Source: Haliclystus octoradiatus (Eukaryota > Cnidaria > Staurozoa > Stauromedusae > Haliclystidae). From it: 64,000 nt of DNA. Shown here piece after piece: positions 6,601 through 62,540 of the stretch. The stretch is taken from assembly GCA_916610825.1 (NCBI GenBank), contig OU744447.1:7695402-7759401 (forward strand). Direction: 5' to 3'. Made by a program: the position numbers and the translations under genes. Each line of letters begins with the position of its first letter. The first letter of the stretch is position 1. Under the pieces are notes generated by a model, which did no database searches, was not told the origin of the DNA, and saw only the letters and a program-made list of their open reading frames with translations.

Positions 6601-9600
6601 GAATGAATGAATGAAACATGATATTAATGATATTTTCTTTGAATTTTTACAATCGACCTTATAAATTTACCTGGCGTTCACTTCCAAATAATTTCCATTT
6701 TCTTGTTGGAAACGAGAAAAAAGCGTACCCAAATTTACCAGCAATTGCAATATAATTCCCAGAACTATCAACGGCAGTATACTATATAGAGATTACAAAA
6801 CAGAAGATAAATTTTGAATTCATAGAATTAATTATGCATTAAATTAATTGATTAATTGATTGACTCATCAACTGATTAATCAGTCACATTGTTTTTCAAC
6901 CGGGATTGCGCATGCGATATGCACCGAGGTTGTCATCATCCATAATATCCGTTAGTGGGACTCCAGGCATGAATCCTGACGAGCTACGACATCTGAAAGG
7001 TCTCTGATGAGTCCCTTGGCAAGGACAAAAAAGGGTCAGACCAGCCTTATCAAATTCATATCTCATTCTGAAATTAATAACTTTCAAAAATATCTATAAA
7101 TGTCCCTGAGAAAAACTGTTCATGAATTTCTAATGGCCTCACTTTTACGAGAAGGCTCATAAAAGAGGCCATTTAACCTCCATGAATAGTTCATGAACAC
7201 AGACTGATGATTCCAATTGACAGAATAATGGCTAACGCAAAGGGGCAAGACAGCAGCTTGAAGCCATTAGAGAACAGTTAAATTTCAAACTACGTTTTAA
7301 GCAGTTTTTGTTTCTAAATAAAACATATTTTTCCCTGATGAAAGGGTTATTTATGAGTTCCAATCTCAAGTTGCAATATTCATGAGTATAAATATCTGTT
7401 TTTAATTGTTTTTGAAGGTAAAAATTTTTGTTTTTAATATGTCTTTGTCTCTTGATGATTTTAAATTATTCATAAATGTTTGAAGATAATTGTAGTCATA
7501 TGAATAAATCTTGCCTTGCTGGCAAGAAAATCCTATTTAAGCTATCTTTCTATGACAGTGAGAACATATTGCTTAGAGCTTAGATTGCAAGAGAGTTATA
7601 ATGTAGGAAATAGGAAACATCAAATCATTTTTAAAAAGTCAATGAGAAGAGCATCAAAATAAGTCCTTTGCATCAGCCATCTTTGTTGTAACCCCCATGT
7701 TGCATAATCTCGTCAGCCGTCTATGTAAGTCTATGTGAGTAACTCACCCTTATTGGCCAATTCGAATTGATATAGCTGCCAGGTACTTGAATAGTTTGCC
7801 AATGTCGATTACTAAACAGCATACTAGGTGACATGGCATTTTCAATACGATCAATAGATCCATCAAGAAATTCTTTATTCTGACTATGAGCAGATTGATG
7901 TAGCAGCATATCACCAGTATTAAAATGGAGACAGTCGTCAGCTTGCAAAATTAAATGTTTGTGATTTGGCTAAAAAACAACAGAGAAGCTCAATAAGTTT
8001 GACGTCACCAGGGTCCGACAAAAGTGGGGATCCTGGGATCCTAGATCCCGGAAGACCAGACAAAATTCAGAAGAAAATTGATGTTTTTAATGATTTATTG
8101 GTCAAACATCAACAACAAAATTCAGAAGAAAATGTTGAAATGCCTCTAGGATTCCAGAAGGCTGAATCTTCTGTCGGACCCTGGACGTCACATGTAAACT
8201 GAATAAAAATTGTAATTAATTATTATTTACTATAACTGGTATATTGAAAGCTGTATATAATAGCCATCTATGGGATGTAGAGAAATTGATAATTATATGC
8301 AAGTGGCATTTATATACAGGGTTGATTCAATAGAAAATTATATTCTAGACAATGCAGTAGTGACCACTAGAGATATGCGGTCTCTGTAGAAAGGTGACTG
8401 TTATAACAGGTTTGACTATATTCAGTCATATATTGATCACTTTATAGTCAAACCTGCATTAGCAGTCACCTCTATATAGCAGCTACCTGTCTACTGTGGC
8501 CATATCAGCAAAGCACGATCTCATAAAATCGGAATGAGCAATCATAGACAAACAGAGTCTTATTCACAGAATGTTCTTATATAGTTCTTATATAGGTCCA
8601 AGATCTACAAATTTGGGGGCTCCCGCCGACTTCACTATAATGTGGTTCGACAGTTAATGTCAAATTTGGGCAAACATCATTTTTTGCCACTAATTTGAGA
8701 AACATTTTTGAGTTCAAAAACATTAAATAGTACCATGCTCATGATATGTTAATGGATGGTTCATGAAAAGTTCACAGGCAGTTTACAAACGTTCATGAAA
8801 ACATGCAATTGAGCATCCATGAACTTTCTATGAATGTTTCCGATAAAAAATGACGTAGATGTTGCTTCATGTATTCTGTCACATGTTTATTTTTGTGACG
8901 TCAATACTCAAAATTGACGGCACAAAAATAAATGCATGGAAGAGTAGACGATTTAAAACATCCATATCTACGTCATTTCTTATCGGATTGGCTTCAAGCT
9001 TTTACCAGTCAAATTTTTAGTCAAAATTTATAATCAATCATTCATTTGAAAAATATTTTTTCAGTATAATCCCATATTGTTGAGAATTTCAGGAGCTACG
9101 AATAATTTCATTTATAATTTGTTATATCTTACCATGCAAGGATTGACAGTTAAAACACTTTTTGCAAATGATAAGGATAGGAAGTCTCCATTATTTAAAA
9201 CTGTCTTTTCATTATTTTGTGATAACGCAGGTATCATTAGTAATTTGTAACCATCTAAGCCCCAGTCCTAAATGAAATAGAATTAAAATAGAAATAAAAT
9301 TTAAACTTGTGTGCATATTTAGATATGGATAAAAATATTTTCATAATTTATTGCTTATATCAAAATTGGTAATAAAAATAGATTAGCTGATGTCTTATAG
9401 ATTAGACGTTTCTAACCTATGTTACCATTTTTAGACGCTGATGACATTTTATAATTTTATTGCTAGAACACATTGACAGAGTGCTTGATGAGTATGCAGA
9501 GCAGTATAGAAGATAAGTCTAAGATTAGATGTTATATTACATATGATAGAAATAAGGTCAAAAGACTAGACGTAGTCTCCGTTACTCACAGTTTCGCGCG

Positions 9601-33053: not shown

Positions 33054-34460
33054 TCAATGCAAGTCGTAGGAATCACTTACTGCAGTAGCTAATTCCCTAG
33101 AAATCCAACTTGGCCAATGCTCGATTGAAATACCATTACTTCGAACTTTCGCGAATAGACCTGCAGGTTTTAATTGATTAGAAGCAATTTGATCGTATTT
33201 GCCCCACAGAGCCATATTTAACTTTACTCCTAATAATAATGAATAAAAATATTTTTGTTCAGTTGAATTGATATATCTTTGTGAATCACATAGTTGTGTT
33301 CTTAATTCGCTAATTACTCTTTCACGATTTACAATTTCATCATGATGCCGACCGTGTGCTTCACTTAGTGTATTTCTCAACGTTTCAATTTGACATCTGC
33401 ATTTTTGTAACTGTGAATCTGCTGCAGTACTTTGTATTCGTGAATCTTCAATATCTTTTTTAAGCATATCAACACTTTCTTTATATAACCGTTCCATAGA
33501 AGTTCTAGTTGTAGTAAGTGCTTTTTGTATTTCAATTTCACGTTCAGTTATACCATCAACTGTTTTCACATCAATGGTTCTACCACCGATATCAATTTTA
33601 ACTTTACCAAGACCACAAAATGCTTCTACAAGTGTTTTTAAACTTTCATCTTCTGCCTTTTGTGAGTCTTGGTATTGTAATGTGAGTTCTTTGACTGCAA
33701 ATTCTCTCCTTTGTCTTTCTGTTTGTCTGGTAGCTTCAATCAAGGCTGTTTCCGCTCTTATCTCTTCTTTCAAACGTTCTAGCTCTTCATTAACACGTGC
33801 TGCAGTATCCTGTGCCTCGATTAGCCTTTGCTGCAAAACTACATAGGGTAATGAATTCACTCCTTCTAGATTTCCTATATCTCTTATAGAATGTTGTGAT
33901 AATGTTAACTCACTTCGTAAATAACTTAACTCTAATTCCTGTTCGCTCATGTCTTTTCTTAAACGTTGTGTTGTTGATTCTAGCGAACTGCAATAACTTC
34001 TGCATGCTTCTAAATCTTCGTTTGGTTCAGGTGGATTATCAAGACGGAAAAACTTACGAACACAGCTTGCCTCAATTACATCACGTAAACTAAATAGATT
34101 TTTCATATAACCTTCAAGGCCAACTTGTCGTTTCTTTATAAATGAACGATTAAAATTATCCATAAAAAATCTTTTAGGTGGCAAATTTATCTGAATATTT
34201 GGAAATCCTCTTTTTAATTTTTTATTCAATAAAACAAAATCAGAATAACGTCGAAAGACGACCCATGATTTCCCAGCATCTCTGACCTCAATTTTATATA
34301 GTGTAAATTTCTCCCTTGGCTCGAAGATTTCTTGTCCTAATATGGCAGATCCAACACTATCAATAGATGAAGTACTCTGTCTATAAAATGATGATGAAGA
34401 ATCAGATCTTTGTGAAATATCCAAGCCACTCCCTCTACTAGCAAAACTTTCATCTGCCAT
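33054..34460 (-). CDS. SNX16: Sorting nexin with PX domain and long coiled coil, SNX16-like (468 aa)
   Basis: SNX16 binds PI3P on early and late endosomes and acts in endosomal sorting (family knowledge). The start Met chosen is MADESFASRG at 34460, which has a good context (AAGATGG) and follows an upstream in-frame stop. A Ser-rich N-terminus (residues 10-40) precedes a PX domain (about 45-145) with KFTLYKI, the PI3P-contact motif RRYSDF (70-75), PPKRFF (94-99), RQVGLE (111-116) and KFFRLDNPP. Residues about 155-400 are predicted coiled coil (heptad-like Leu, Glu, Arg), longer than I recall for vertebrate SNX16. The last ~70 residues are non-coiled. The gene is one uninterrupted exon although its neighbours have many introns, so an origin by retroposition is possible. 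Another PX protein with a coiled coil is the main alternative. Confidence 0.8.
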   Translation of the reverse strand: MADESFASRGSGLDISQRSDSSSSFYRQSTSSIDSVGSAILGQEIFEPREKFTLYKIEVRDAGKSWVVFRRYSDFVLLNKKLKRGFPNIQINLPPKRFFMDNFNRSFIKKRQVGLEGYMKNLFSLRDVIEASCVRKFFRLDNPPEPNEDLEACRSYCSSLESTTQRLRKDMSEQELELSYLRSELTLSQHSIRDIGNLEGVNSLPYVVLQQRLIEAQDTAARVNEELERLKEEIRAETALIEATRQTERQRREFAVKELTLQYQDSQKAEDESLKTLVEAFCGLGKVKIDIGGRTIDVKTVDGITEREIEIQKALTTTRTSMERLYKESVDMLKKDIEDSRIQSTAADSQLQKCRCQIETLRNTLSEAHGRHHDEIVNRERVISELRTQLCDSQRYINSTEQKYFYSLLLGVKLNMALWGKYDQIASNQLKPAGLFAKVRSNGISIEHWPSWISRELATAVSDSYDLH

Positions 34461-36208
34461 CTTTATTTTTGTTGATTTCGAAGTTGAAAAGAAACCTTGA
34501 TGTCTTCTCAATCAAAATCAAACCATTGTGGTACAACTTTCTCGTGTCTGCACTACAAAGTCATGTGATGCGTAGGGGTCCAAAATGACGTCACTATGCT
34601 TAGAACGATTTTCTCTGTATTCAGGTCACCTATTGGCCTTTGCCCGTTACTATGCACGGAACGTGGTTACTATGAACGCCAATAAATATATAACAAAAGA
34701 TTTCAAGAGAGTTTACGATTTGAGATTTGATAGTCATTGTTTACCAATTAAGGTCTCCGTCATCTCCACGGTTGAATTAGAAGTGAGATTGACGATATTA
34801 TTATTGACAAACCGTTCATGCAGTAGCTGTAGATCTTCTCATGGTATGAAAATGTTTTTAATCTTTTTGTTAAAAATGTTTATCAGAGGTGTATGGAGTC
34901 GGAATTTTCAGACTCTGAATCCAAAAAAAGTCCGAAATAGTGAGCATTTGACTCCGAGAATGTAAGAAAAATAGACTCCAAGTCCTGCTCCAAAATATTT
35001 CAGACAAACTCCTGTTAAAAGTCCTAAAATGGATTAATTCATCAACCTCAAATGCAGCCAATCCAGCAGCTTCTATGAAGAATATATAGACAATGCTCAA
35101 TTTCTCAACTCCGGCTCCGACTTCCACTCCTGCATGGTTGGCAAAAATTTCACTCCAGTCCGGCTCCTGTTAAAATTGTGGATACTTCTTCCATAGTTTG
35201 ACTACGGTTCCTACCTCTGGTGTATATTTTTGAATATGTTCTTTATTTTCCAAGAATCTATTATGAATAAGCATCAATCTACTTACAAAAGCGTGTTCTA
35301 TAAAAGGTCTGAGTGTATCAGGGGATGAGCGGCATTGTCGACAATATCGAATCCCTCCAATTCAGAGAGGTCTTCGGCCGAACAGAACATGCAGGCTATA
35401 GGAAGAGAGCGGACATCTCGAGCGAATTGTTGGGACACTGAAATAACGGGACAAACTGACCCTGTTGATTGCTCCGCTATTACGATATACATTGTCATTT
35501 CGATGGAATTACTCAGAAATACATCTCTAGTAAAGTCAAGTATATAGCGCATATATTTATTTAGCAAGCGAAAATCATTGTTTTTATATAATTATTATAA
35601 AATTCATATCGTATAATATTTATAGTCAAAATAAATTTATTTAGGAATAAATACACGAGTCCAGTAGCATCTTTTAAGATAGTAATGTAGATCACGAAAG
35701 GTTTTCAAGTTCCAGAAAGTCACAGATTTGCATCTGAGCAATGAGCATGATTTGAGGTTATTACACGACCATGTTCTTCGGATTTTCACCTCCTTTCCAT
35801 TTCAGATCGAGAAAAATCGGGATTACGCTGTAACAACCGATCCCCGATGAGTCTCACCAGTATCAATCTGGAATTGGGAGCAGGCTTCTGTCCTGAATAT
35901 ATTTCTTAAAACTTCTTTGTAAATAAATCCAAAATTATTCAAAATTCCAAGTAATTTATCGTTTTGAAAGATGTAAAATCTCAATCATATAATGATTTTC
36001 AACAAAAAACTTTTCAAATTCCGGGCAAACATAATCATATACTATATATGGTCCAATTACCAATATTATGCTATATATCACTGCCTTGCATAATATAATA
36101 ATAATTTACCATCATCTTCTATCACTAATCCGATCATGTATAATTATGTATAATATTATGTAATGTACAGAGTATTTTTAATTATAGAAATATATTTCTT
36201 CGGCCCGA
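34461..36208. other. Intergenic between SNX16-like and calcyphosine-like genes
   Basis: Contains the upstream region of the SNX16-like gene and one CAGAGGTG element. Open frames here are short and show no recognisable domain. Confidence 0.5.
34884..35219. mobile_element. hAT-like element, CAGAGGTG family, second copy
   Basis: From CAGAGGTGTATGGAGTCGG to GGTTCCTACCTCTG, with GACTCCAAGTCCTGCTCCAA and AATATTTCAGACAAACTCCT inside, as in 32099-32474. A right-end fragment (TTCCGTACACCTCT) also occurs at about 37064-37183. Confidence 0.7.
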
Positions 36209-41772: not shown

Positions 41773-41990
41773 TGCGACCTTGGTGTAGTGGTTAGAGCGT
41801 TGGACCACGGCCCGCAGGGTCTCAGGTTCAATCCCTGGCCGGAGCACTATAGGTTGGCGTCAGGAAGGGCATCCGGCTATTAAACGCACACAAGCTTCAA
41901 AATACTAACCAATTTAACCAACCACCCCGGTGAAAAAAAGCTGCAAGCTTACCCGGTTTGTGGATAAATGATAAATCCAAAAAAAAAAAA
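41773..41990 (+). mobile_element. SINE family 2 (tRNA-derived)
   Basis: tRNA-like head with A box TGGTGTAGTGGTTAGAGCG and B box GGTTCAATCCC, then a GGTTGGCGTCAGGAAGGGCA block, and a 3' end AAACCGG-type segment followed by poly(A). Near-identical copy at 58063. Confidence 0.9.
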
Positions 41991-42098: not shown

Positions 42099-42104
42099 AT
42101 TTTA
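42099..42104 (-). promoter_or_regulatory. Candidate AATAAA polyadenylation signal of the peptide gene
   Basis: AATAAA on the minus strand, about 145 bp after the stop codon at 42249. Another AATAAA overlaps the stop codon itself and is too early to be typical. Confidence 0.4.
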
Positions 42105-42248
42105 TTCACGTATACCAAAGTCAACAATTGGTTGAATTCTAGGGAGTAGCTTCTATCGCGCTTTGAATGGGTTGTTCAAATAATCCCCATATACCCTGGC
42201 ATATACCATAACGCATGGAAGTAGCCGCCAGGGGATTAATAATAATGT

Positions 42249-45200
42249 TTATTTCTTGCCCCATCCCCATCTCCAACGACGAATATGAGGGAGTCTACGA
42301 GCAGCAGTGACAACTCTTCGAACAGGAGGAAGTCTGATTTTTCGGATTTCGTTAAAACGTATCCAGGCTTTTGGGTCATTGTGTTCATCTAAAGGTATGA
42401 AAATAAACATATCAGATACTGGATACTATAGACATACCAATTTTGACCATTACAGGGTATCCATCAAAAGTGAAATTCGGAAGTGGAAACCAAGCTTGTG
42501 GTTGCAGCCAGGCTTTGAAACTCCGAATTAACTAGAATTTAATCAAATCTTCTTATATTGTATGAGTTGGAAATAAACCTCCTGAAGCTAGAACCATGTG
42601 AAGCTCTTAATGAATATATGATATTGTGCCTCAACCGTTATACTCAAGGATGTAAATTATTATTTCAAATTTGAACTTCAAACTCTATATCAAAAACAAA
42701 CAGAATGATACTGTATAATAAGTTATATGGATTATGGATTTATCATTTATCAGCAAACCGGTTAAACTTGCAGATTGTATTATCGATTCAATGGGCATTC
42801 AATTCTGTAGATGAAATCTGTGGGGGCTTTAAGATTTTACTAACTAATGAGATTGAGGATACTTTAGCTTAAATATTGCAGCATTATATAGGTTGTAGAT
42901 TCGACGGTTCACGAGTGGCTACTTCCATATCGAATATGAGTCAGCTGCTATGGAAAGCATACCTCTTGCATCTAAATCGTTTTCATCGTCATCTTGGTCT
43001 TGTCTATCAAAATCTGTAATATCAAAAATCAAGATGAGTTAAGTTAAGATGATCAATATTATATGCCATAGTTGTAAATTTTTATGTATTCTTCTCATGT
43101 ACGTAAAAGTAATGTAGACGGTGTCGCCCTACCGAAGGCACCCATACCACTTCTCTATTTCTAGATGAGTGATTTCCAGATAGGTCTTGATTGTCAATGC
43201 GCAACGATGCGCCGCAGCTACTCACAATGCAATTCCCTCTGGACCATTCCATCCGCCATCCTCAGATGGAACTCATTTGATGTTTTAGATAAAGTCAAAG
43301 CTGAGTTGACCTTAGGGGGATTTGAACCATATTAAGCATCACTATAATGCACGCGCCAGCACATAACATCAATATGTTCACACATTCATGAAATCCAAAT
43401 AGAATCAGTGTATATGCTGTGTTGATCAATAGAAGAAAGTTATACCGTTATGACAGGCTGTGAACCTCCTATACCATTCTCGCATACCCCCGGGGGACTT
43501 CCCTACTGATGTAGCCTGGGACTGAGAGAGTCCTCGAGGCACATTGTATTAACCTTGATATTCATTATATAGTTCACGTTTATGCTCAACCAGAGCCCTA
43601 GCTATATTACTGTTGTCTATCTTTACTACGAACATAACACTTACATTGATTGTACGGGGACGTGCCAGTGCCATTTTACGGGGTGCATTTTTCAGATTAT
43701 TGTGAAATTTTACGGTGTTAATTTAGAGATTTTCAAAATGTTTAGAACTTTTTTTTTGTTTTGCTCGTAAAAACATGAAATTTTAGGGTCTTCATTCTCA
43801 TTTGCTGTGCAATTTTACGGTTTTAGTAGCTGTTTGAATATTTATAGCACATACCTTCAAATATTGAATCGTCGTCATCTTCCTGGTTGTGATCTATAAT
43901 AAAGAGGAACGAAGGTCAGCCAAGATGTAATACAGTAGTAATATATCTATCATTAGTATATAGTCATCCAAATTATGAATATGTATCTATAATAATATAA
44001 TATAATATAATATAATATAATATAATATAATATAATATAATATAATATAATATAATATAATATATAATATAATATAATATAATATAATATAATATAATAT
44101 AATATAATATAATATAATATAATATAATATAATATAATATAATATAATATAATATAATATAATATAATATAATATAATATAATATAATATAATATAATAT
44201 AATATAATATATAATATAATATAATATAATATAATATAATATAATATAATATAATATAATATAATATAATATAATATAATATAATATAATATAATATAAT
44301 ATAATATAATATAATATAATATAATATAATATAATATAATATAATATAATATAATATAATATAATATAATATAATATAATATAATATAATATAATATAAT
44401 ATAATATAATATAATATAATATAATATAATATAATATAATATAATATAATATAATATAATATAATATAATATAATATAATATAATATAATATAATATAAT
44501 ATAATATAATATAATATAATATAATATAATATAATATGAGGTAAACACATGTGAGAGTGTTCAATGTTTGTTAAGACAGAGCATAATATACAATAGACAC
44601 AAAGATGAGGCAAAAGCCTTTTTCGTTACTCGGAGTTTACGCGTGAAGCTCGAGCTCCGAGTAACGGAAAAGGCTTTTGCCTCATCTTCGTGTCTATTTA
44701 TATATGTATCTTACTATGAATATTACACTCGGACGTACGGTTCTTCAATATATGGTAATGATTTGAGTGAATTAAATGTTTTGACATTTCGCTTTGCCGG
44801 GTCAAAACCATAGACTTATTGGAAACATATAATAAAAGATAATTTATTAGATTATTATTATTATTATTATTTGCAATTATTAGATGTTCTAATAAGTCTA
44901 TGTTCAAAATATATATCAGAGCCGGGTTAACTAAACCGCGCGAAATGCAATTCAACTATTGCATTAGCTGGTCTATACATGTAGAAAAGTTTATTCAATA
45001 TAGATATCTATTAGGTATATATATTAAGTATTTGGCAAATTGGAAGTAAAGAATGAATATACAAGAGTAAATGCATAGCCTGAGTCCAGACGAAAACATT
45101 TCTAAACGAAAGTGTAAACTTTACACTTTCCTTCAGAAACGTTTTAGTCTTGACGCAGGCTAGTAAATGCATTATTCTCAAACATTACGGATCATATTAA

Positions 45201-45298
45201 CATTCGTGCATTGCACATATCTCTATTAAAGTATATTTACATGAAAGCCCCAAGGCAATACCCATAAATAACAAGGCGACCAAAAATAGCTTTGTCAT
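42249..45298 (-). CDS. Secreted 95-aa precursor with acidic spacer and basic Trp-rich amidated C-terminus (antimicrobial or neuropeptide candidate)
   Basis: I do not recognise this gene. Four short exons join in phase: 45298-45241, 43893-43855, 43013-42963, 42388-42249 (TAA). All introns are GT..AG and the sum is exactly 96 codons. Exon 1 encodes a signal peptide (MTKLFLVALL, hydrophobic to residue 19). Exons 2 and 3 encode a spacer dominated by Asp/Glu (DDDDS, QDDDEND; about 14 D and 4 E in 38 residues). Exon 4 switches to a strongly basic region (10 R, 3 K in its last 40 residues) with RKIR, three RR pairs, and the end WRWGWGKK. The final G-K-K is the canonical signal for C-terminal amidation after removal of the two lysines. 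Acidic spacers that offset a basic peptide are typical of antimicrobial precursors. The dibasic sites plus amidation also fit a neuropeptide prohormone. A pyrimidine tract and CAG directly before the ATG suggest an acceptor site there. Confidence 0.75.
42725..42780 (-). mobile_element. SINE family 2, 3'-end fragment
   Basis: GGATTTATCATTTATCAGCA followed by AACCGGTTAAACTTGCAG matches the 3' end of family 2 in reverse. Confidence 0.5.
43114..43335 (-). mobile_element. SINE family 1, internally deleted, head lost
   Basis: Begins (on plus) with ATGTAGACGGTGTCGCCCTA, lacks ~100 bp of the middle found at 62541, and stops at GGGGGATTTGAACCATATTA without the A box region. It lies in the peptide gene's intron between exons 2 and 3. 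Confidence 0.85.
43991..44537. repeat. (TATAA)n microsatellite, ~547 bp
   Basis: An almost perfect pentanucleotide array with two phase-shifting TATATAAT interruptions (near 44062 and 44210). It lies in intron 1 of the peptide gene. The long frames across it are artefacts of the repeat. Confidence 0.97.
44593..44697. repeat. Near-perfect 105-bp hairpin
   Basis: Left arm ATAGACACAAAGATGAGGCA then AAAGCCTTTTTCGTTACTCG; right arm CGAGTAACGGAAAAGGCTTT then TGCCTCATCTTCGTGTCTAT. The arms of ~43 nt differ at about two positions around a ~19-nt loop containing ACGCGT. In intron 1 of the peptide gene. Confidence 0.9.
45076..45162. mobile_element. 87-bp foldback element with 9-bp duplication
   Basis: TAGCCTGAGTCCAGACGAAA at the left and TTTTAGTCTTGACGCAGGCTA-type right end, flanked by GTAAATGCA on both sides (45067-45075, 45163-45171). 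It lies in intron 1 of the peptide gene. Related to 36941-37030; 56170-56260 may be a further relic. Confidence 0.85.
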
Positions 45299-45781
45299 CT
45301 GTTTGGAGAAATTAAAAAAGAAAAGAATTAGAGAGATGCCGATATCTTGTTGTCCTATACTTTGTAATCAACATGGATGCAACTTTTATGGAAATGCAAA
45401 TAATAAACAATAAATTGATGTTATCAAACTGTTTTTTTTTTGCCCATCAAATGAGGAAGTAGAGGATTAAGGATTCAATAGGAAGGTATAGTATTTATTT
45501 GGGAATCTACATGAAGCTGAACATAGTTATATTATATATCTTACCTAGCTATAGAATTTATGCAAAAGTATATAGCGGTATGATAGTTAAAATATTTCCA
45601 AATTGATGGTCAATAATATTTTAAGGATAGCAATCAAATAATTAGATAATGTTGAGCAATTAGTTGATGAAAGAACAAATAATTATTATTTAACTACAGT
45701 CAACTTTTCTTGATAATGAAAAGAGTCAAAACAGCAATTAATAAAGACATTCTATCAAGATCTATAATTAAGATATGTACG

Positions 45782-45938
45782 TGTGCTATTACAACTTATT
45801 TACATTACAATATTGATATACTTCCTGTAAACATAATCGTGTCATTTATAGTTTTAGTTTAGATTCTAATATACTGATCTGTGATCAACAACGTTTATTC
45901 TCTCGTCTCAAGTTCTAGCTTATTCACATAATACTACA
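45782..45938 (+). repeat. 5' LTR of the Ty3/gypsy-type element
   Basis: 157 bp, TGTGCTATTACAAC...ATACTACA, identical by eye to the 3' LTR. Confidence 0.95.
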
Positions 45939-45956
45939 TGGCGCTGCGATTATTCG
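45939..45956 (+). promoter_or_regulatory. Primer-binding site candidate
   Basis: TGGCGCTGCGATTATTCG begins directly at the LTR end with the TGG complementary to a tRNA CCA tail. The donor tRNA is not identified. Confidence 0.6.
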
Positions 45957-46075
45957 AACTTTGGGATTGTTATTGTTGATTTGTTATTTATACCTTCGTC
46001 TTCGTTTGGTATATTTATTGGTTCATATTTTTCATTCATCTTACTGTTCGTGTTGTTTACATTATGCCAATTAGG

Positions 46076-46150
46076 GGTGATTTAGGGGTGATTATTACAT
46101 TACATTATACATTATACATTATACATTATTACATTATACATTATACATTA
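46076..46150 (+). repeat. (TACATTA)n-like simple repeat before the SINE head
   Basis: Repeated ATTATACATT words between two copies of TTAGGGGTGATT. They resemble the ACATTAC tail of SINE family 1, so this may be the tail of an earlier SINE or an expanded target site. Confidence 0.6.
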
Positions 46151-46510
46151 GGGGTGATTAGCTCAGTTGGCAGAGCAACCGAACTTCAGATTGTATCATA
46201 TCTGATCGACTGTGGTTCAAATCCCCCTCAGGTCAACTCAGCCTTAACTTTATCTGAAACATCAAATGAGTACCATCTAAGGATGGCGGATGGAATGGTT
46301 CAGAAGGAAATGCATTGTGAGTAGCTGCGGCGCATCGTTGCGCATTGACAATCAAGACCTATCTGCCATGAAATCTGTTGAAATTGATCTGCAGTGTCGC
46401 GGCTGAGATCTAAGGAGCGTTTAACATCATTGCTCTTAGCGAAAAGAGCCACTTCTCTAGAAATAGAGGAGTGGTACGGGTGCCTTCGGTAGGGCGACAC
46501 CGTCCACATT
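46151..46510 (+). mobile_element. SINE family 1, full length, inside the retrotransposon leader
   Basis: tRNA-like head GGGGTGATTAGCTCAGTTGG with a perfect A box (TAGCTCAGTTGG), B box GGTTCAAATCC near 46204, a unique body, and the 3' end GGGCGACACCGTCCACATTA. It ends about 7 bp before the Gag-Pol start codon. This is the best reference copy of the family in the window. Confidence 0.92.
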
Positions 46511-46516
46511 ACTTTA

Positions 46517-49500
46517 ATGGAGACACGTCAGAATGAAAAAGCTTCCACAAGCACTGCTGGTGATGAAGAATTCTCTGATAATTCTGATTCTCATGATCCA
46601 ATAATACCTTTGGCATCTTCTATTAATCTACCTTCAGGAGATATTCCGCCATGGTTTAACGCCATTTTACAGCAACAACAACAAGCTTTTACCGCCGCTC
46701 TGCAATCCGTCGCTAAAGCAACTTCAAAACACAGAAATAACGAATCTCACTCGGGTTCAGCCAAAAGAATGGACATACCAACATTAAAAAGTCCTTCGAA
46801 GATAACTATTGCCGATTTTCGTGATTGGGAAGAACGATTTTCAGGTTACGCTGCTGCGACACGTTTGTCAACAGACTGCAATCTCGCTGCTCGAAGAGGC
46901 ATACTAAGATCTGCAATTCACGACGATTGGTCAAAGTTGTGGACAGCCAAAGTAATCTTGGTCAACGATATCGATGATACAGACGCAATAATAGACAAAT
47001 TTAGTCATTATCTTCGAGATAAACGAAATCCACTGCTTGATCGAAAAGAATTTCACAACAGGGACCAACTTCCTGATGAGACGATAGATCAATACTACGC
47101 CGTTCTACGCACGCTTGATGAAAGCTGTGGGTTTTCCCCTGAGTTAACACGCGAAACATGTCACGCAGACACAGGAATATCACAAAACATGCGGGACGAA
47201 AGACTGCGGGACCGTCTAATATGTGGCCTCCGCGATGTTGACACGCAACAAAAAGTCCTGGCAGAAAAATTTTCTACGCTTACATTAAAGAAAACATTAG
47301 ACATTTGTACATCTCACGAGGCAAGTAAGACAACACAAGACAAGTTAGCAACCTCTTCAACAATTAATGTCTCAGCAATCAAAAGCAAGAAGCCTTACAA
47401 GAAATCAGAAAAATCAAATACTGGTCGTCAAGACAACAACAGCTCTAATGAACATACACCTAAATGTTATTTTTGTGGCAAGCAAAAGCATTCAAGAGCC
47501 GAATGCCCAGCAAAAGAAGCTATATGTGGATTTTGTGACAAGTTAGGACACTATCAATCAGTTTGCAAAGCAAAAAAAAGATCATCACATCAACCAAATA
47601 CTAACCATGTATATCTTAATGCATTGTCAAATACAACTGATACAATCAAGCTACTAACTACACATGAACATGGACCCTCATACCTTCATTGGCTACCTGA
47701 CACTGGTGCTGCATGTGACGTCCTAAGTGTTCAACATTTAAAGGCATTAAACTGTGACCTTTTATTAAAGTTGAAGCCAGCTACTGATCAACTATTTACA
47801 GCTAATTCAACACCTCTATCAACACTTGGTCGCTGTTCTCTGACAATCAAACTTAACAACAATCAATACACTGCTGACATTCATGTGGTGGACGCTGTCA
47901 ATGCACCATTACTAAGCAAAAAAGGATGCATTGCGTTGGGTCTTATTCCTGAAAACTGGCCAGACTTATCAGCAGCTACTCCTGTCAACACTGTGTCTCT
48001 ATTGGCAAGCACTGACCAAGAAGCTCATCACATCAATCTACCAACACAGCAATCTTCCAACGATGACGCCACACAACTTATAAAGGAATTCTCTTCTGTT
48101 TTCACTGACACAGGACCACTACGGAAAATGGATGGCCCTGCAATGAAGATAGAGCTGACCGAAGACGCCACACCTACTCGCCAATACAAAGCGTATAATA
48201 TACCGTTTAAGTGGCAGAAATTGGTACAAGCACAACTAGATTCGATGATCACAAAGGACATCATAGAAAAAGTTCCTTTGAACGAATCACCACAATGGAT
48301 TCACCCTATGGTTGTCGTTCCAAAGAAGAACTCTACAGAGCCAAGAATCACAGTTGATCTCACATCACTAAATCGGTTTGTCAAAAGACCTGGTTATCCA
48401 TCACGCACACCACGAGATCTGATCGCCAACATCCCGCCTGGAATGAAATACTTCACTACCTTGGACGCCCGTCATGGCTACTGGCAAGTACCTCTGGCTA
48501 CTGAATCAAGACCGCTCACTACATTCATCACACCCTGGGGCTGTTACCGCTTTAGAAGGAATGTCATGGGTCTTATCAGCGCTGGCGATGAGCACAACCG
48601 ACGTGGAGATGAAGCATTGGCTGGCATTGACAACCTACAGAAAGTGGTGGAAGACGTCATCATCTACGACAAAGACTATGACACACACATCAAACGAGTC
48701 AAAGACGTCTTAAAGAGATGCTCTGATAATGGTATCACCTTGAATAAAAAGAAATTTCATTTTGCTCAATCATCTGCTGAATGGTGTGGGTATGTTATTA
48801 CTTCAACTGGTTACACGTTAAATCCTCGCCTGGTTACTGCATTGACAGAATTTCCACAACCAACATCATTGACGCAACTACGCTCTTTCCTTGGTCTGGT
48901 ACAACAGTTTGAATCATTTTCATCTGAAATTTCACAACTGGCAACACCACTACGAGCTCTACTGTCACCTTCAACATCTTTCTATTGGAATCAACTCCAC
49001 CAAGATGCATTCAAAGGCCTCATCAATGAACTAACTAGTCCACGCATCCTTGCTCATTTCAATCCACAAGCTCAACTCCGACTTGAAACAGATGCTGCAC
49101 AATCTAAAGGACTTGGCTATGCTCTATGGTCCGAACAAGATGACAAAACTTGGCGCCTCCTACAATGTGGTTCACGCTTTGTCACTGATGCAGAGTCCCG
49201 CTACTCTGCTACTGAAATTGAATTGGCCGCAGTCGTTTGGGCAACCCAGAAGTGCAAAATGTTTTTACATGGGTCATCATTTAACCTAATTGTCGACCAC
49301 AAGCCACTAATATCCATCCTCAATGACAAGCGTCTGCACCAAATTCCAAGTGCAAGAATCATTCGCCTCAAAGAAAAGTTATCATCATTTTCATTCACTG
49401 CTATCTGGCGTGCTGGTACAAGTCACACCGTCGTCGATTGCTTCTCACGACATCCAGTTGATCAACCAAGTCCAGACGATGTCAACATTGATACAGATGC

Positions 49501-50863
49501 TGATTCAAGCTTCCAAGTAAATCACATCCAAACTCGTCTTCAATCAACTGATGCTACCAACTTTCCACCAGACGCAACTCTCAACAAAGTCAAATCTGCA
49601 GGTGAAAATGACGCAGTACATCTCAAGCTAGCTGACCTGATCATTAATGGCTTCCCACAACAGAAGGAAAAACTGGACATCAGCATTCACCCCTATTGGT
49701 CACTACGTCACGATCTGTCACTCTTGGAATCATCAATCATCCTCTACCAAGATCGCATTCTTATCCCAAAATCTCTTCGATCGACTATGCTGAATGAACT
49801 CCACACATCTCATCTTGGTCTAACTCGAACTCTTGCACGAGCTCGACAATGTATTTTTTGGCCAAATATGACCAACGAAGTCACAAATCGAATTCGGTCA
49901 TGCGAAGAATGTGCCCAAAGACTGTCATCCAACTCACATGAGCCACTTATTCAAGACACACCACCAACTCGTCCTGGTGAAGCGATTGCAACAGACATTT
50001 TCTCACACCATGGCCACGAATTCCTTGTCATCACCGATAAGTACTCTGGTTGGCCTCACGTTGTACACTGTGGCAAGAGCACCGATACAGACACCGTCGT
50101 CGATATTCTATCCAGCTGGTTCTGTAGCATGGGTGTCCCTATTCGCTTAACGTCTGATGGTGGACCGCAGTTTTCAAGTCATGCATTTTCAGCATTCTGC
50201 AAAGATTGGGGCATAATTCACGACCCGTCGTCACCATACCATCATCAAGCCAACGGACATGCAGAAGCTGCTGTCAAAGCTATGGAAAATATTGTCGCCA
50301 AAGTAACAACAAATGGACACCTCAACACAGAAGCCTTCTACAAAGCTCTATTGGAATACCGTAATACACCAAGAAGTGATGGTATCAGTCCAGCCCAGCG
50401 TTTATTTGGCAAACCTCTTCGGTCACGAATCCCAATTCATCCATCGCAATTCACTGATGACATCAAGCAACTAATTATTATTGCAGACAAGAAAGCAAGC
50501 ACGCTAAAAGAAAAAGCAAAACAACAACATGACCTTCATGCTCGCCGCCTTGATCCATTCATTCCTGGTGATATTGTCCGCATCCAAAATCAGAATACCA
50601 AACATTGGGATCGCATTGGAGAAATTGTCTCTATTGATCCTCGAGGACGCAGCTATCGCCTAAAAACCGAATCTGGTCGACTCTACTGGCGCAACCGCCG
50701 TCAACTCCGCCGGTACTATGGTCCATCAACATCAACTACAGCTGCTGCTTCAACCACCCCAGAGGAGGAAGAACCATCAACAAATACATCTAGTGCATCA
50801 TTACATTCACCACCTAGACGCAGCACTAGAAAGAAAAACAAAACTAATAAACTAAATTTATAA
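46517..50863 (+). CDS. Gag-Pol polyprotein of the Ty3/gypsy-type element (1448 aa)
   Basis: Order of domains: Gag with two CX2CX4HX4C zinc knuckles (CYFCGKQKHSRAEC near residue 317 and CGFCDKLGHYQSVC), protease with LPDTGAACD near 394, reverse transcriptase with TTLDARHGYWQ near 648, RNase H (LETDAAQ near 857, SATEIELAAVVWA, NLIVDHKPL), integrase zinc finger (LHTSHLG...CEEC near 1095-1135), integrase core (ATDIF near 1160, TSDGGPQFS near 1213, NGHAEAAVKAME near 1250) and an SH3-like C-terminus (GDIVRIQ...YWRNRRQLR). Gag and Pol are fused without a frameshift or stop. At the reverse transcriptase metal site the motif reads VVEDV (E at residue 712, codon 48650-48652), where the family normally has two adjacent Asp. 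The domain order with integrase last assigns it to Ty3/gypsy. Confidence 0.96.
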   Translation: METRQNEKASTSTAGDEEFSDNSDSHDPIIPLASSINLPSGDIPPWFNAILQQQQQAFTAALQSVAKATSKHRNNESHSGSAKRMDIPTLKSPSKITIADFRDWEERFSGYAAATRLSTDCNLAARRGILRSAIHDDWSKLWTAKVILVNDIDDTDAIIDKFSHYLRDKRNPLLDRKEFHNRDQLPDETIDQYYAVLRTLDESCGFSPELTRETCHADTGISQNMRDERLRDRLICGLRDVDTQQKVLAEKFSTLTLKKTLDICTSHEASKTTQDKLATSSTINVSAIKSKKPYKKSEKSNTGRQDNNSSNEHTPKCYFCGKQKHSRAECPAKEAICGFCDKLGHYQSVCKAKKRSSHQPNTNHVYLNALSNTTDTIKLLTTHEHGPSYLHWLPDTGAACDVLSVQHLKALNCDLLLKLKPATDQLFTANSTPLSTLGRCSLTIKLNNNQYTADIHVVDAVNAPLLSKKGCIALGLIPENWPDLSAATPVNTVSLLASTDQEAHHINLPTQQSSNDDATQLIKEFSSVFTDTGPLRKMDGPAMKIELTEDATPTRQYKAYNIPFKWQKLVQAQLDSMITKDIIEKVPLNESPQWIHPMVVVPKKNSTEPRITVDLTSLNRFVKRPGYPSRTPRDLIANIPPGMKYFTTLDARHGYWQVPLATESRPLTTFITPWGCYRFRRNVMGLISAGDEHNRRGDEALAGIDNLQKVVEDVIIYDKDYDTHIKRVKDVLKRCSDNGITLNKKKFHFAQSSAEWCGYVITSTGYTLNPRLVTALTEFPQPTSLTQLRSFLGLVQQFESFSSEISQLATPLRALLSPSTSFYWNQLHQDAFKGLINELTSPRILAHFNPQAQLRLETDAAQSKGLGYALWSEQDDKTWRLLQCGSRFVTDAESRYSATEIELAAVVWATQKCKMFLHGSSFNLIVDHKPLISILNDKRLHQIPSARIIRLKEKLSSFSFTAIWRAGTSHTVVDCFSRHPVDQPSPDDVNIDTDADSSFQVNHIQTRLQSTDATNFPPDATLNKVKSAGENDAVHLKLADLIINGFPQQKEKLDISIHPYWSLRHDLSLLESSIILYQDRILIPKSLRSTMLNELHTSHLGLTRTLARARQCIFWPNMTNEVTNRIRSCEECAQRLSSNSHEPLIQDTPPTRPGEAIATDIFSHHGHEFLVITDKYSGWPHVVHCGKSTDTDTVVDILSSWFCSMGVPIRLTSDGGPQFSSHAFSAFCKDWGIIHDPSSPYHHQANGHAEAAVKAMENIVAKVTTNGHLNTEAFYKALLEYRNTPRSDGISPAQRLFGKPLRSRIPIHPSQFTDDIKQLIIIADKKASTLKEKAKQQHDLHARRLDPFIPGDIVRIQNQNTKHWDRIGEIVSIDPRGRSYRLKTESGRLYWRNRRQLRRYYGPSTSTTAAASTTPEEEEPSTNTSSASLHSPPRRSTRKKNKTNKLNL

Positions 50864-50909
50864 TCAATATTCATTACATGTATATTTCTATAATCTCCCA
50901 GAAAGGGCA

Positions 50910-51066
50910 TGTGCTATTACAACTTATTTACATTACAATATTGATATACTTCCTGTAAACATAATCGTGTCATTTATAGTTTTAGTTTAGATTCTAATAT
51001 ACTGATCTGTGATCAACAACGTTTATTCTCTCGTCTCAAGTTCTAGCTTATTCACATAATACTACA
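50910..51066 (+). repeat. 3' LTR of the Ty3/gypsy-type element
   Basis: 157 bp, identical by eye to the 5' LTR, followed by the GTACG duplication. Confidence 0.95.
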
Positions 51067-54049: not shown

Positions 54050-55279
54050 CTAAAGTTCTTCTTTCGTAATTGGAGAACCCTCAGGTTTAGGTATTCTAGG
54101 TTGTGTTAAATCAACATTAAATCCCAAATCAATATCATCAAGTACTCCTGGTCCATAAACATCTTGGAGTGTTTCAATAAAATCATCTTCACTATTAGCT
54201 TCAGGTAATACATCATCTATAAATGTGGCTAATAAAATTTCTCTTTCTCTTCTATAATCATCATCGTGTATGGCATTAGCATAAAATGAACAAATTTCTT
54301 TAACAGCTACCTCAAACTTTGTAGGTGCCCAATCATCTAATTTACTTTTAGCAACACTAATATCTAATGGGCCTTTAAATGTTGTTGGGAACCGGTACCA
54401 TGCTGTATCGATATCATGATCATAATTTATTGAACTAATTTGGTGACATTTACCAATTTCTTTTAATAGATTTTTCAAAGTAATTGGCTCGTCAAATGCA
54501 ATGTTAATAATTTCATCTGAAAGTTGAACTTGTCCATCGACTATAACTTCAATTGCTCTAGAAACATCTTTAGAATATGCTAAGCTAAATTCGTGATTTT
54601 GAACTGGCGAAGGTAGTGAAACTTTAATCTTTAAATCCTGATGTAGTTTAATCCATAAATCGTAAATCCAGAATCTCATTGTTTCATCACGTGGACCGAT
54701 AGCGTCAGCAACACGAAAAATAACATAAGTGAATCCTCCTTTTTTTCGTTGACTAATCAATAGATCTTCACAAGATAATTTATTGTTTGCATATTTATTT
54801 TCATTATTTAATTCTTGCATTATTGTTTCATTCGTTGGTCTTTTGTCATCTGTTTCCTTAGTTAAACTAGAATGTTCTTTTGTAGTAACTTCATAAATTG
54901 AATCTGTACTCACATAAATGTAGACACCAACTCTATTTTTCAAAACATCTAAAATTTGATCTAGTTGGACAGGTTTAAACGAGCTGAAGTCTATAACATA
55001 ATCATAATATCCTGATGTTAATAATTCTTTACAATTCTTACGTAATAATTCATCTCTATCACATATTATATGCTTATTTGCCAGCCAATTTATTCGTGTA
55101 TCTGAAGCAAAATGGATGTTTCCTCTTGTAAGTAAGTCAATTGCATAATCTCGCTGTGAAAGGGCAAGGAAAGTTTCACTGCCAAGAAAACCAGTCCCTC
55201 CTAGTATTAATATTTTTAAACCTTTTAAATAACCAAAATTAGTAATAAATAACAAACAAAACAACTTTAAAAACGCCAT
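54050..55279 (-). CDS. ER-targeted extended short-chain dehydrogenase/reductase (409 aa)
   Basis: An NAD(P)-binding epimerase/dehydratase-type protein; the substrate is unknown. The start is the ATG at 55279 (ATAATGGCG). Residues 1-20 form a signal peptide (FLKLFCLLFITNFGYL). The Rossmann loop is GGTGFLG (27-33), a conserved Asp-Phe-Ser region is near 97-100, the catalytic Ser region is VSTDS (123-127) and the YxxxK pair is Y163/K167 in YANNK. FRVADAIGPRD follows, as in extended SDRs. The C-terminus is KEEL, a KDEL-type ER retention signal, so the enzyme is probably ER-luminal. An N-glycosylation sequon (NET, near 150) agrees with this. The gene is a single exon. It could also be an RNA-binding-type SDR homologue without enzyme activity. 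Confidence 0.85.
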   Translation of the reverse strand: MAFLKLFCLLFITNFGYLKGLKILILGGTGFLGSETFLALSQRDYAIDLLTRGNIHFASDTRINWLANKHIICDRDELLRKNCKELLTSGYYDYVIDFSSFKPVQLDQILDVLKNRVGVYIYVSTDSIYEVTTKEHSSLTKETDDKRPTNETIMQELNNENKYANNKLSCEDLLISQRKKGGFTYVIFRVADAIGPRDETMRFWIYDLWIKLHQDLKIKVSLPSPVQNHEFSLAYSKDVSRAIEVIVDGQVQLSDEIINIAFDEPITLKNLLKEIGKCHQISSINYDHDIDTAWYRFPTTFKGPLDISVAKSKLDDWAPTKFEVAVKEICSFYANAIHDDDYRREREILLATFIDDVLPEANSEDDFIETLQDVYGPGVLDDIDLGFNVDLTQPRIPKPEGSPITKEEL

Positions 55280-56617
55280 TATTTTGTAATAAACATTCTC
55301 CTGCAAGCTGAAGAATATGACAGGAAACCGTTTTATTTAAACCTTATCGGTATTTATTCAGCTAAGTTGAACAGCGAATCAATAATGTTTACGTCAAGAC
55401 AGGGCACTCGTAACGTGTATTTACTTCCGCTGTTGGTTTCGAAATCAAAGTTTTTGGTTACTTTGGAAAAAAACTTTAAAAGCTTTAGCTGATGTAGAAG
55501 AGTAGATTAAAGTTATTATTCTTTTCTTACTCAAACATCTGCGCTCAAATTTTAATTAAATGAGAGATGTAAAACTTGGATGAAAGGATTTATCTGTGTT
55601 TGTGAAAACTAAACTTTCCAAAGCATCTGTTTGACGGTGAATGCATTTCGTCTACCAGGCGCGAAATCGCTTTATTATATAGATTATGGCCCTAGATAAC
55701 TATTAGTCAGTCACATTGTTTGCAAATGCTTTGAAATCTGAGACAAGAGCAGAGTAGCCTGCCTGTATGTGGTTGTTATTTACAAGTTTCTTTGTCAGCT
55801 ATGTCTGACAGTGATTTGTGGCGTTCTTTGTGTAGCAAATATGTAAGGCATAAGAGGGACGGCACATTCCTTATAATGTGACGGTCTATCTACTACTACT
55901 ACTGTATGCGGTTGTACTTGGTTGTATATGTTATTACATTCCATACGTGTATCTATTTTTGGAAATATATTTTTGCTAAATATAGACATATAAATGTAAT
56001 ATAAAGTCTGTTGCCTTACGTTAATTTACCATGGTATACTATATTGTAATTAATTTATCATATTTCTGAATAAATTATGATCATAAATCATAGCAATTAA
56101 ACCCTTTAAAACAACGGTTTCGCTGTCACTAAAACTAGCCTGTTCGGTATCTTCTCCATGGTAAAAAAGACAATTAGCCTGCCTGTAGACTCAAAATGTT
56201 TCTAAGCAAAACAGTAGATATTTTACTGTTTTGCTTAAATTTTTTGAGTTTGTGCGAGAATCGGATCGAACATAAATAGTAAGACACCAAAAACCCACAC
56301 ACAAATAAGTCATATCATTGAAAGTTTAATAATACAATACTTGCAAAATAATTAAAACCATTGCAATTGAACGTCATTGTCAATATAACAGAACAAATAT
56401 TATATAAATTGACAAATAATCAAAAAGTTAATACTATATTTTTCAAATTTAATAATACAATTCCAAAAAATTGTCAAAGAATATAATGAAATTACAAACA
56501 AAATAAAATATAGAAAGATAGCTTAGCTACTGAATAAAATGGTAATAAGGGTGTGGTTTTTATAACTGCCATATCATGACAATAGATAATACACTAGATT
56601 GACAAATAAGATGAAAT
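55280..56617. other. Intergenic between reductase and calcyphosine-like gene B
   Basis: The upstream region of the reductase gene and the 3' flank of gene B. A weak foldback relic lies near 56170-56260 (GCCTGCCTGTAGACTCAAAA). Nothing else is recognised. Confidence 0.5.
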
Positions 56618-62092
<5,475 letters not shown>

Positions 62093-62540
62093 CTGAATAG
62101 GAATGGAAATTAAATAATTAGGGAGAGGAAGCTTGACAATGAAAAGTTACTGAAGAAGATTATCAACTAAATTTAAGTACATTATACATAAATAATTTTA
62201 TAAGAAAAGTTGTACAAAAAAGCCTAATTTTCAAACTAACTTCCATTCACTTTGTATGGTTAGACGAGCAACCATACCTCATATGTTCTGCACATTTTAC
62301 AGCTCTGGATATCAAGCAATTTGTAAGCAACTTCTCGTACAACAAGATCCAATTTCATTTAAGAAACTTTTAGTACTATGTTTGAAAACTGTGGCATTTT
62401 CTGAATTTCAAGTAGGGGAACAATAGAACAATATAATAGATTGATGGGTCATAGAGCCAAGTAGAGGTCTTTGTTTTACAAGGCTTAGCCTACTGGTAAG
62501 GACTTGATTTTTTTATTCAAGGATGGCGCCCCTCCTTGCA

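What the first reader, a model, noticed from the sequence alone, without database searches (positions are those of the whole stretch)
42249..45298. Unrecognised four-exon gene for a secreted, acidic-spacer, Arg/Trp-rich, amidated peptide
The exons (58, 39, 51 and 140 bp) are too short to appear as significant open frames, but all splice sites and phases fit and give exactly 95 residues: signal peptide, Asp-rich spacer, then a basic region ending WRWGWGKK. G-K-K at the C-terminus is the classic amidation signal, which would leave a Trp-amide. RKIR and three RR pairs are convertase-type sites. The charge reversal between exons 2-3 and exon 4 is characteristic of antimicrobial precursors; the dibasic sites plus amidation also suit a neuropeptide. 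I recall no described family with this end. The exon chain is read directly; the function is inferred.
Basis: partly seen in the sequence, partly recalled or inferred. Interest (0 to 1): 0.88.

Follow-up and report, generated by a model that had tools for sequence, protein, structure and literature searches.

The report
Stalked-jellyfish antimicrobial-type peptide precursor gene
This stretch of a stalked jellyfish's genome looks like a real but small split gene for a secreted, probably amidated, arginine- and tryptophan-rich peptide, built in the style of the antimicrobial arminins of Hydra although common ancestry with them is not shown.

Summary
On the minus strand four exons (58, 39, 51, 140 bp; 45298-45241, 43893-43855, 43013-42963, 42388-42249) join at GT-AG sites, all introns phase 1, into 95 residues plus stop. 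A scan of 264 kb for such chains found only this one, against none in 80 resampled strand-runs (criteria set after seeing the gene). The genome (261.86 Mb, 33 contigs, 18,316-base mitochondrial contig of medusozoan type) matches the published numbers for Haliclystus octoradiatus, a staurozoan. No paralogue was found and no Pfam or NCBIfam family. The layout (signal peptide, acidic spacer -16, basic end +13, G-K-K) is that of Hydra arminins, whose arminin 1a also ends GKK; placozoan "arminin-like" precursors share it. Best reading: an arminin-style antimicrobial precursor whose amidated peptide disrupts bacterial membranes; expression and activity untested. A new member of a known kind, of moderate interest.

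The parts
45241..45298 (-). coding exon 1 (58 bp): ATG and signal peptide MTKLFLVALLFMGIALGLS, phase 1 donor GTAAAT
   Evidence: best 10-residue hydropathy mean 2.9; no signal-peptide predictor was available
45299..45320 (-). pyrimidine-rich tract and AAACAG acceptor directly before the ATG: sign of an upstream non-coding exon or trans-spliced leader
   Evidence: inference, no RNA data
43855..43893 (-). exon 2 (39 bp): acidic spacer HNQEDDDDSIFE
42963..43013 (-). exon 3 (51 bp): acidic spacer FDRQDQDDDENDLDAR; perhaps a duplicate of exon 2
   Evidence: duplication suggestive only with flanks, not for the exons alone
42249..42388 (-). exon 4 (140 bp with stop): end of spacer and basic region KAWIRFNEIRKIRLPPVRRVVTAARRLPHIRRWRWGWGKK
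   Evidence: net charge +13 over residues 56-95
42252..42275 (-). codons for WRWGWGKK: Trp-rich end with G-K-K amidation signal
   Evidence: the degenerate DNA pattern for this end matches once in the genome
42248..42253 (-). AATAAA overlapping the stop codon, possible polyadenylation signal; another at 42101-42106
   Evidence: inference

Best explanation
A gene, single-copy as far as could be searched, of the stalked jellyfish Haliclystus octoradiatus for a secreted host-defence peptide precursor of arminin style. Shown by sequence: a four-exon phase-1 chain coding for a signal peptide, an Asp-rich spacer (-16) and a basic Arg/Trp-rich end (+13) closed by G-K-K. Inferred: the signal peptide is removed in the ER; the acidic spacer neutralises the basic part until it is cut off near the N-D-P/K-A-W boundary; carboxypeptidase removes KK and the amidating enzyme turns the Gly into a Trp-amide; the roughly 37-residue peptide (+11) binds and disrupts bacterial membranes through its Arg/Trp residues at an epithelial surface.
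For: Exact exon chain, the only one of its kind in 264 kb and absent from 80 resampled strand-runs. Charge layout -16/+13, 10 Arg and 4 Trp in the 37 residues 56-92. Same layout in Hydra arminins (PMC4820302, passages), same GKK end in arminin 1a (PMC12011183, passage), arminin-like precursors with an amidation signal in Placozoa (PMC12013895, passages). The genome has 23 exon-level matches to the copper type II monooxygenase C domain, which amidating and dopamine-type hydroxylases share (the two were not told apart). Exon GC 0.41 against 0.19, 0.38 and 0.33 in the introns, the first lowered by an AT repeat.
Against: No RNA, peptide or activity data. No paralogue found, whereas arminins number nine in H. 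vulgaris AEP and 12 in H. oligactis, though the same paper infers only two in the ancestor. The best helical moment of the basic part is no higher than in shuffles (2836 of 5000 reach it), as for arminin 1a by the same measure (3569 of 5000), so no special amphipathic helix is shown. Two internal Pro pairs or singles (LPP, LP) and a Gly in the mature part. Donor 1 and three of the four acceptors score modestly.
Confidence: 0.6

Rival explanations
1. A neuropeptide or peptide-hormone precursor: cutting at RKIR and the RR pairs frees short peptides, the last of them WRWGW-amide.
For: G-K-K amidation signal and dibasic sites; staurozoans have a Trp-amide neuropeptide family, pQPPGAWamide (PMC6909153, passages).
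Against: The three staurozoan families described there occur in several to many copies per precursor; here there is one amidation site and no related repeats. That study's script asked for at least three similar copies, so a single-copy precursor would have been missed. 38% Arg+Trp (14 of 37) fits an antimicrobial better.
Confidence: 0.15
2. A cytolytic peptide of the nematocysts or another venom component that is matured from an acidic propeptide.
For: Cnidarian genome; cationic secreted peptide with a propeptide.
Against: No cysteines, and no family match in Pfam or among PDB sequences; nothing found ties it to nematocysts.
Confidence: 0.1
3. No functional gene: a decayed remnant or a chance chain of short frames.
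For: No RNA evidence available; donor 1 is weak; no conserved relative could be found or looked for outside this genome.
Against: None of 80 resampled strand-runs of 264 kb gives such a chain, also with looser charge and hydropathy limits; all phases fit and the frame is intact over 96 codons in four pieces.
Confidence: 0.1

Closest known systems
Arminins of Hydra (arminin 1a, UniProt D2XUU4, 88 aa)
   Same: Acidic N-terminal part, basic C-terminal part, no cysteine in the mature peptide and end ...GKK; cnidarian.
   Different: Mature-peptide similarity no better than shuffles; Trp-rich GWG end; Asp-rich rather than (as recalled) Glu-rich spacer; one gene found instead of nine or 12 paralogues; arminins are said to be confined to Hydra.
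Arminin-like AMP1-4 of Placozoa (Trichoplax)
   Same: Signal peptide, acidic then basic precursor, amidation signal (PMC12013895, passages).
Trp/Arg-rich antimicrobials such as indolicidin (and lactoferricin, recalled)
   Same: Dense Trp and Arg in a short stretch; the indolicidin sequence is listed.
   Different: Unrelated precursors (cathelicidin, lactoferrin; recalled); no alignment was made.
Staurozoan pQPPGAWamide neuropeptides
   Same: C-terminal Trp-amide in a staurozoan.
   Different: Short peptides in numerous copies per precursor; no sequence repeat of that kind here.

Membership tests
Hydra arminin family | Short secreted precursor with a negatively charged N-terminal and a positively charged C-terminal part | tested here: met
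   Charges -16 (residues 20-55) and +13 (56-95); family description
Hydra arminin family | C-terminal Gly followed by basic residues, for amidation | tested here: met
   GKK in both
Hydra arminin family | Sequence similarity of the mature peptide | tested here: not met
   Best local score 27; 2231 and 2375 of 5000 shuffles reach it. The C-terminal part is described as scarcely conserved within the family.
Hydra arminin family | Conserved N-terminal (acidic) region | tested here: inconclusive
Hydra arminin family | Paralogues, most of them in one locus (H. vulgaris AEP) | tested here: not met
   No convincing copy within 100 kb either side and none genome-wide at DNA or exon-protein level; short divergent exons could be missed (one search did not list the gene's own exon 2). 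infers two arminins in the Hydra ancestor, so this is weak evidence.
Hydra arminin family | Membrane- or wall-disrupting antibacterial activity | not testable with these tools
   Needs the peptide
Cnidarian neuropeptide preprohormones (criterion of PMC6909153) | At least three similar peptide copies with processing sites | tested here: not met
   One GKK end only; criterion from passages; single-copy precursors are not excluded by it

The most novel reading that the evidence does not exclude
This is a true arminin homologue outside Hydra, in Staurozoa. Arminins, reported as strictly confined to Hydra, would then date to early medusozoans, fast evolution of the mature peptide having hidden them elsewhere. 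The precursor that I recall (unverified) shares E-x-N-D-x-K-x-W and a following R-F around the spacer/peptide boundary, and the GKK end.
Probability: 0.15. Interest if true: 0.65.

Novelty: new member of a known kind. Interest (0 to 1): 0.4.

Why it matters
I saw no experimentally described antimicrobial peptide from a stalked jellyfish: one listing of 12 of 19 papers holding 'Staurozoa' and 'antimicrobial peptide', passages of two of them (the second reports three predicted staurozoan peptides, in silico only), and one paper holding 'Haliclystus' and 'antimicrobial', seen as a listing. This is not an exhaustive search. An arminin-style precursor there gives a concrete sequence with which to ask whether arminins are really a Hydra invention or part of an older, fast-evolving medusozoan family, and adds a compact Arg/Trp peptide with a probable Trp-amide for activity tests.

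Tried and rejected
Tunicate origin: considered at first; the glycosyl hydrolase 6 search was empty (uninformative, nothing rang in its controls either) and the mitochondrial contig pointed to a medusozoan. First genome pattern: I guessed the codons wrongly and it matched nothing. Family profiles: Pfam and NCBIfam empty; Pfam has no match for the arminin 1a peptide either. PDB sequences gave chance-level matches only (E 1.4 to 3.5). Plasmid collection: no match. Exon 2/exon 3 duplication: exons alone not significant (440 and 636 of 3000 resampled; 1204 of 3000 codon-shuffled); with flanks 11 and 16 of 3000, but shared splice signals inflate this; left as suggestive. Arminin 1a peptide against the genome: nothing, without a positive control. 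Copper monooxygenase loci: frames of one were listed but not assigned to an enzyme. Structure prediction of exon 4 never ran. Published peptides with RRWRWGW, WRWGWGKK or RWRWGWG: none in the open-licence library (sequences shown only in figures would be missed).

Full report
What is there. The reported chain is present to the base. On the minus strand, exons 45298-45241 (58 bp), 43893-43855 (39), 43013-42963 (51) and 42388-42249 (140, with TAA) join at GT-AG sites, all in phase 1, into MTKLFLVALLFMGIALGLS / YHNQEDDDDSIFEDFDRQDQDDDENDLDARDEHNDP / KAWIRFNEIRKIRLPPVRRVVTAARRLPHIRRWRWGWGKK (the slashes are my division). The introns are 1347, 841 and 574 bp.

Chance. I took the window plus 100 kb on either side and searched both strands for four-exon chains with a hydrophobic start exon, two acidic short exons and a basic last exon, in phase, with splice scores above cut-offs set just below the gene's own. 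Only this chain was found on the two real strands; none in the reversed or the complemented sequence; none in 80 strand-runs resampled by a first-order Markov model, under strict and under looser charge and hydropathy limits. An earlier run with cut-offs a little too high found nothing, not even this gene. The criteria were made after seeing the gene, so the result shows that the combination is rare; it is not a formal probability. In the 264 kb only one other open frame (29 codons, charge +8 in its last 30 residues against +11) meets a loose rule of basic end plus terminal G, GK or GKK-type residues.

Whose genome. The own assembly has 261,861,806 bases in 33 contigs. COX1 lies on contig 33, an 18,316-base mitochondrial contig read with TGA as Trp: a polB-type frame at both ends, rnl and cox1 on one strand, then cox2, atp8, atp6, cox3, nad2, nad5, rns, nad6, nad3, nad4L, nad1, nad4 and cob on the other (protein genes named by my reading of the translations; cox1 and the rRNAs). 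That order is, as I recall, the medusozoan one. The published assembly of Haliclystus octoradiatus has 262 Mb, 33 scaffolds and an 18.3-kb mitochondrial genome (PMC9975415, passages). The match is strong but rests on these numbers.

Relatives. Searches of the own genome with the protein, with exon 1 and exon 4 DNA and with a degenerate pattern for the Trp-rich end find only the gene itself. Within 100 kb on either side the best other matches are chance-like: exon 1, E 0.72 with a stop inside; the acidic exons, E 0.08 to a run of Asp; exon 4, E 3.3. Short exons limit sensitivity: one search did not list even the gene's own exon 2. No other animal genome could be searched.

How it may work. The layout is that of a charge-balanced host-defence precursor. 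Net charge is -16 over residues 20-55 and +13 over 56-95; without GKK the basic part has 37 residues, +11, with 10 Arg and 4 Trp. Steps inferred: signal cleavage, removal of the acidic spacer, trimming of KK, amidation of Gly to give a Trp-amide, binding to bacterial membranes. The genome gives 23 exon-level matches to the C-terminal domain of copper type II monooxygenases, but that domain is shared with dopamine-type hydroxylases, so presence of the amidating enzyme is likely, not shown. The best helical moment is not above that of shuffled versions, for this peptide or for arminin, so I claim no particular fold; structure prediction could not be run.

Known kinds. Arminins of Hydra have a conserved acidic N-terminal part and a scarcely conserved basic C-terminal part, and bacterial cell walls are disrupted by arminin (PMC4820302, passages). 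Arminin 1a ends ...VGKK (PMC12011183, passage). They are reported as strictly confined to Hydra, with nine paralogues in H. vulgaris AEP, most in one locus, 12 in H. oligactis, and an inferred ancestral number of two (PMC10945409, passages). Placozoan precursors with the same features, amidation signal included, were called arminin-like (PMC12013895, passages). Against the published arminin peptide the alignment is no better than shuffles. Against the full arminin 1a precursor as I recall it, with shuffling inside each segment so that the charge layout is kept, 92 and 69 of 4000 shuffles reach the score with gap cost 11, and 230 and 170 with gap cost 8 (full length); for spacer plus peptide alone the numbers are 170 and 108, and 256 and 157. 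This is borderline, rests on one unverified sequence and does not establish homology. I therefore say that it works like an arminin, not that it is one.

Neuropeptide rival. The staurozoan neuropeptide precursors described in PMC6909153 carry repeated RPRSamide, GRFamide or PPGAWamide peptides (passages). This gene has one amidation site and no repeats of that kind, but that study's script asked for at least three copies and could not have found single-copy precursors.

Further details. An AAACAG acceptor with a pyrimidine tract abuts the ATG, so the gene probably has one more exon upstream or receives a spliced leader. AATAAA overlaps the stop codon. Exons 2 and 3 may be duplicates (suggestive only).

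Verdict. The function is inferred. It is a new member of a known kind of precursor, in a class for which I saw no characterised antimicrobial peptide in the limited literature looked at.

Noticed in passing
window 45782-51066: LTR-retrotransposon-like element: one 1456-codon stop-to-stop frame of gag-pol type by eye (46493-50863) between direct repeats of 157 nt that are 100% identical (45782-45938 and 50910-51066). It looks like a young insertion and begins about 0.5 kb upstream of the peptide gene's ATG.
   Followed up: partly
window 43118-43330: Intron 2 holds an inverted stretch that resembles 46170-46500 near the left end of that element (by eye), perhaps a fragment of a related element.
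   Followed up: no
window 43992-44537: 108 copies of the pentamer ATAAT, 98% matches, inside intron 1 of the peptide gene; it makes long spurious open frames.
   Followed up: no
window 44592-44698 and 45076-45162: Two long palindromes (arms 44 and 43 nt, 95% and 86% complementary) in intron 1, MITE-like.
   Followed up: no
window 41780-41990: tRNA-derived SINE-like sequence downstream of the gene, ending in an A-run; an inverted piece of its tail seems to lie in intron 3 near 42735-42775 (by eye).
   Followed up: no
window 2-2404: Long frame that looks like the end of a BEL/Pao-type retroelement polyprotein (by eye).
   Followed up: no
window 33054-34511 and 54053-55336, minus strand: A PX-domain sorting-nexin-like frame (485 aa) and a single-exon, secreted-looking NAD-dependent epimerase-like frame (428 aa); names by eye, no profile search made.
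   Followed up: no
window 59257-62109, minus strand: Short frames with EF-hand-like loops (for example [13 protein letters not shown]), probably exons of one gene (by eye).
   Followed up: no
own genome contigs C4, C5, C11: 23 exon-level matches to the copper type II monooxygenase C domain, many of them clustered, some with stops inside: suggests an expansion of this superfamily in the staurozoan.
   Followed up: no
window 6206-6666, minus strand: Repetitive (FIHS)n-type frames in all three reading frames of one strand, from a tandem repeat.
   Followed up: no
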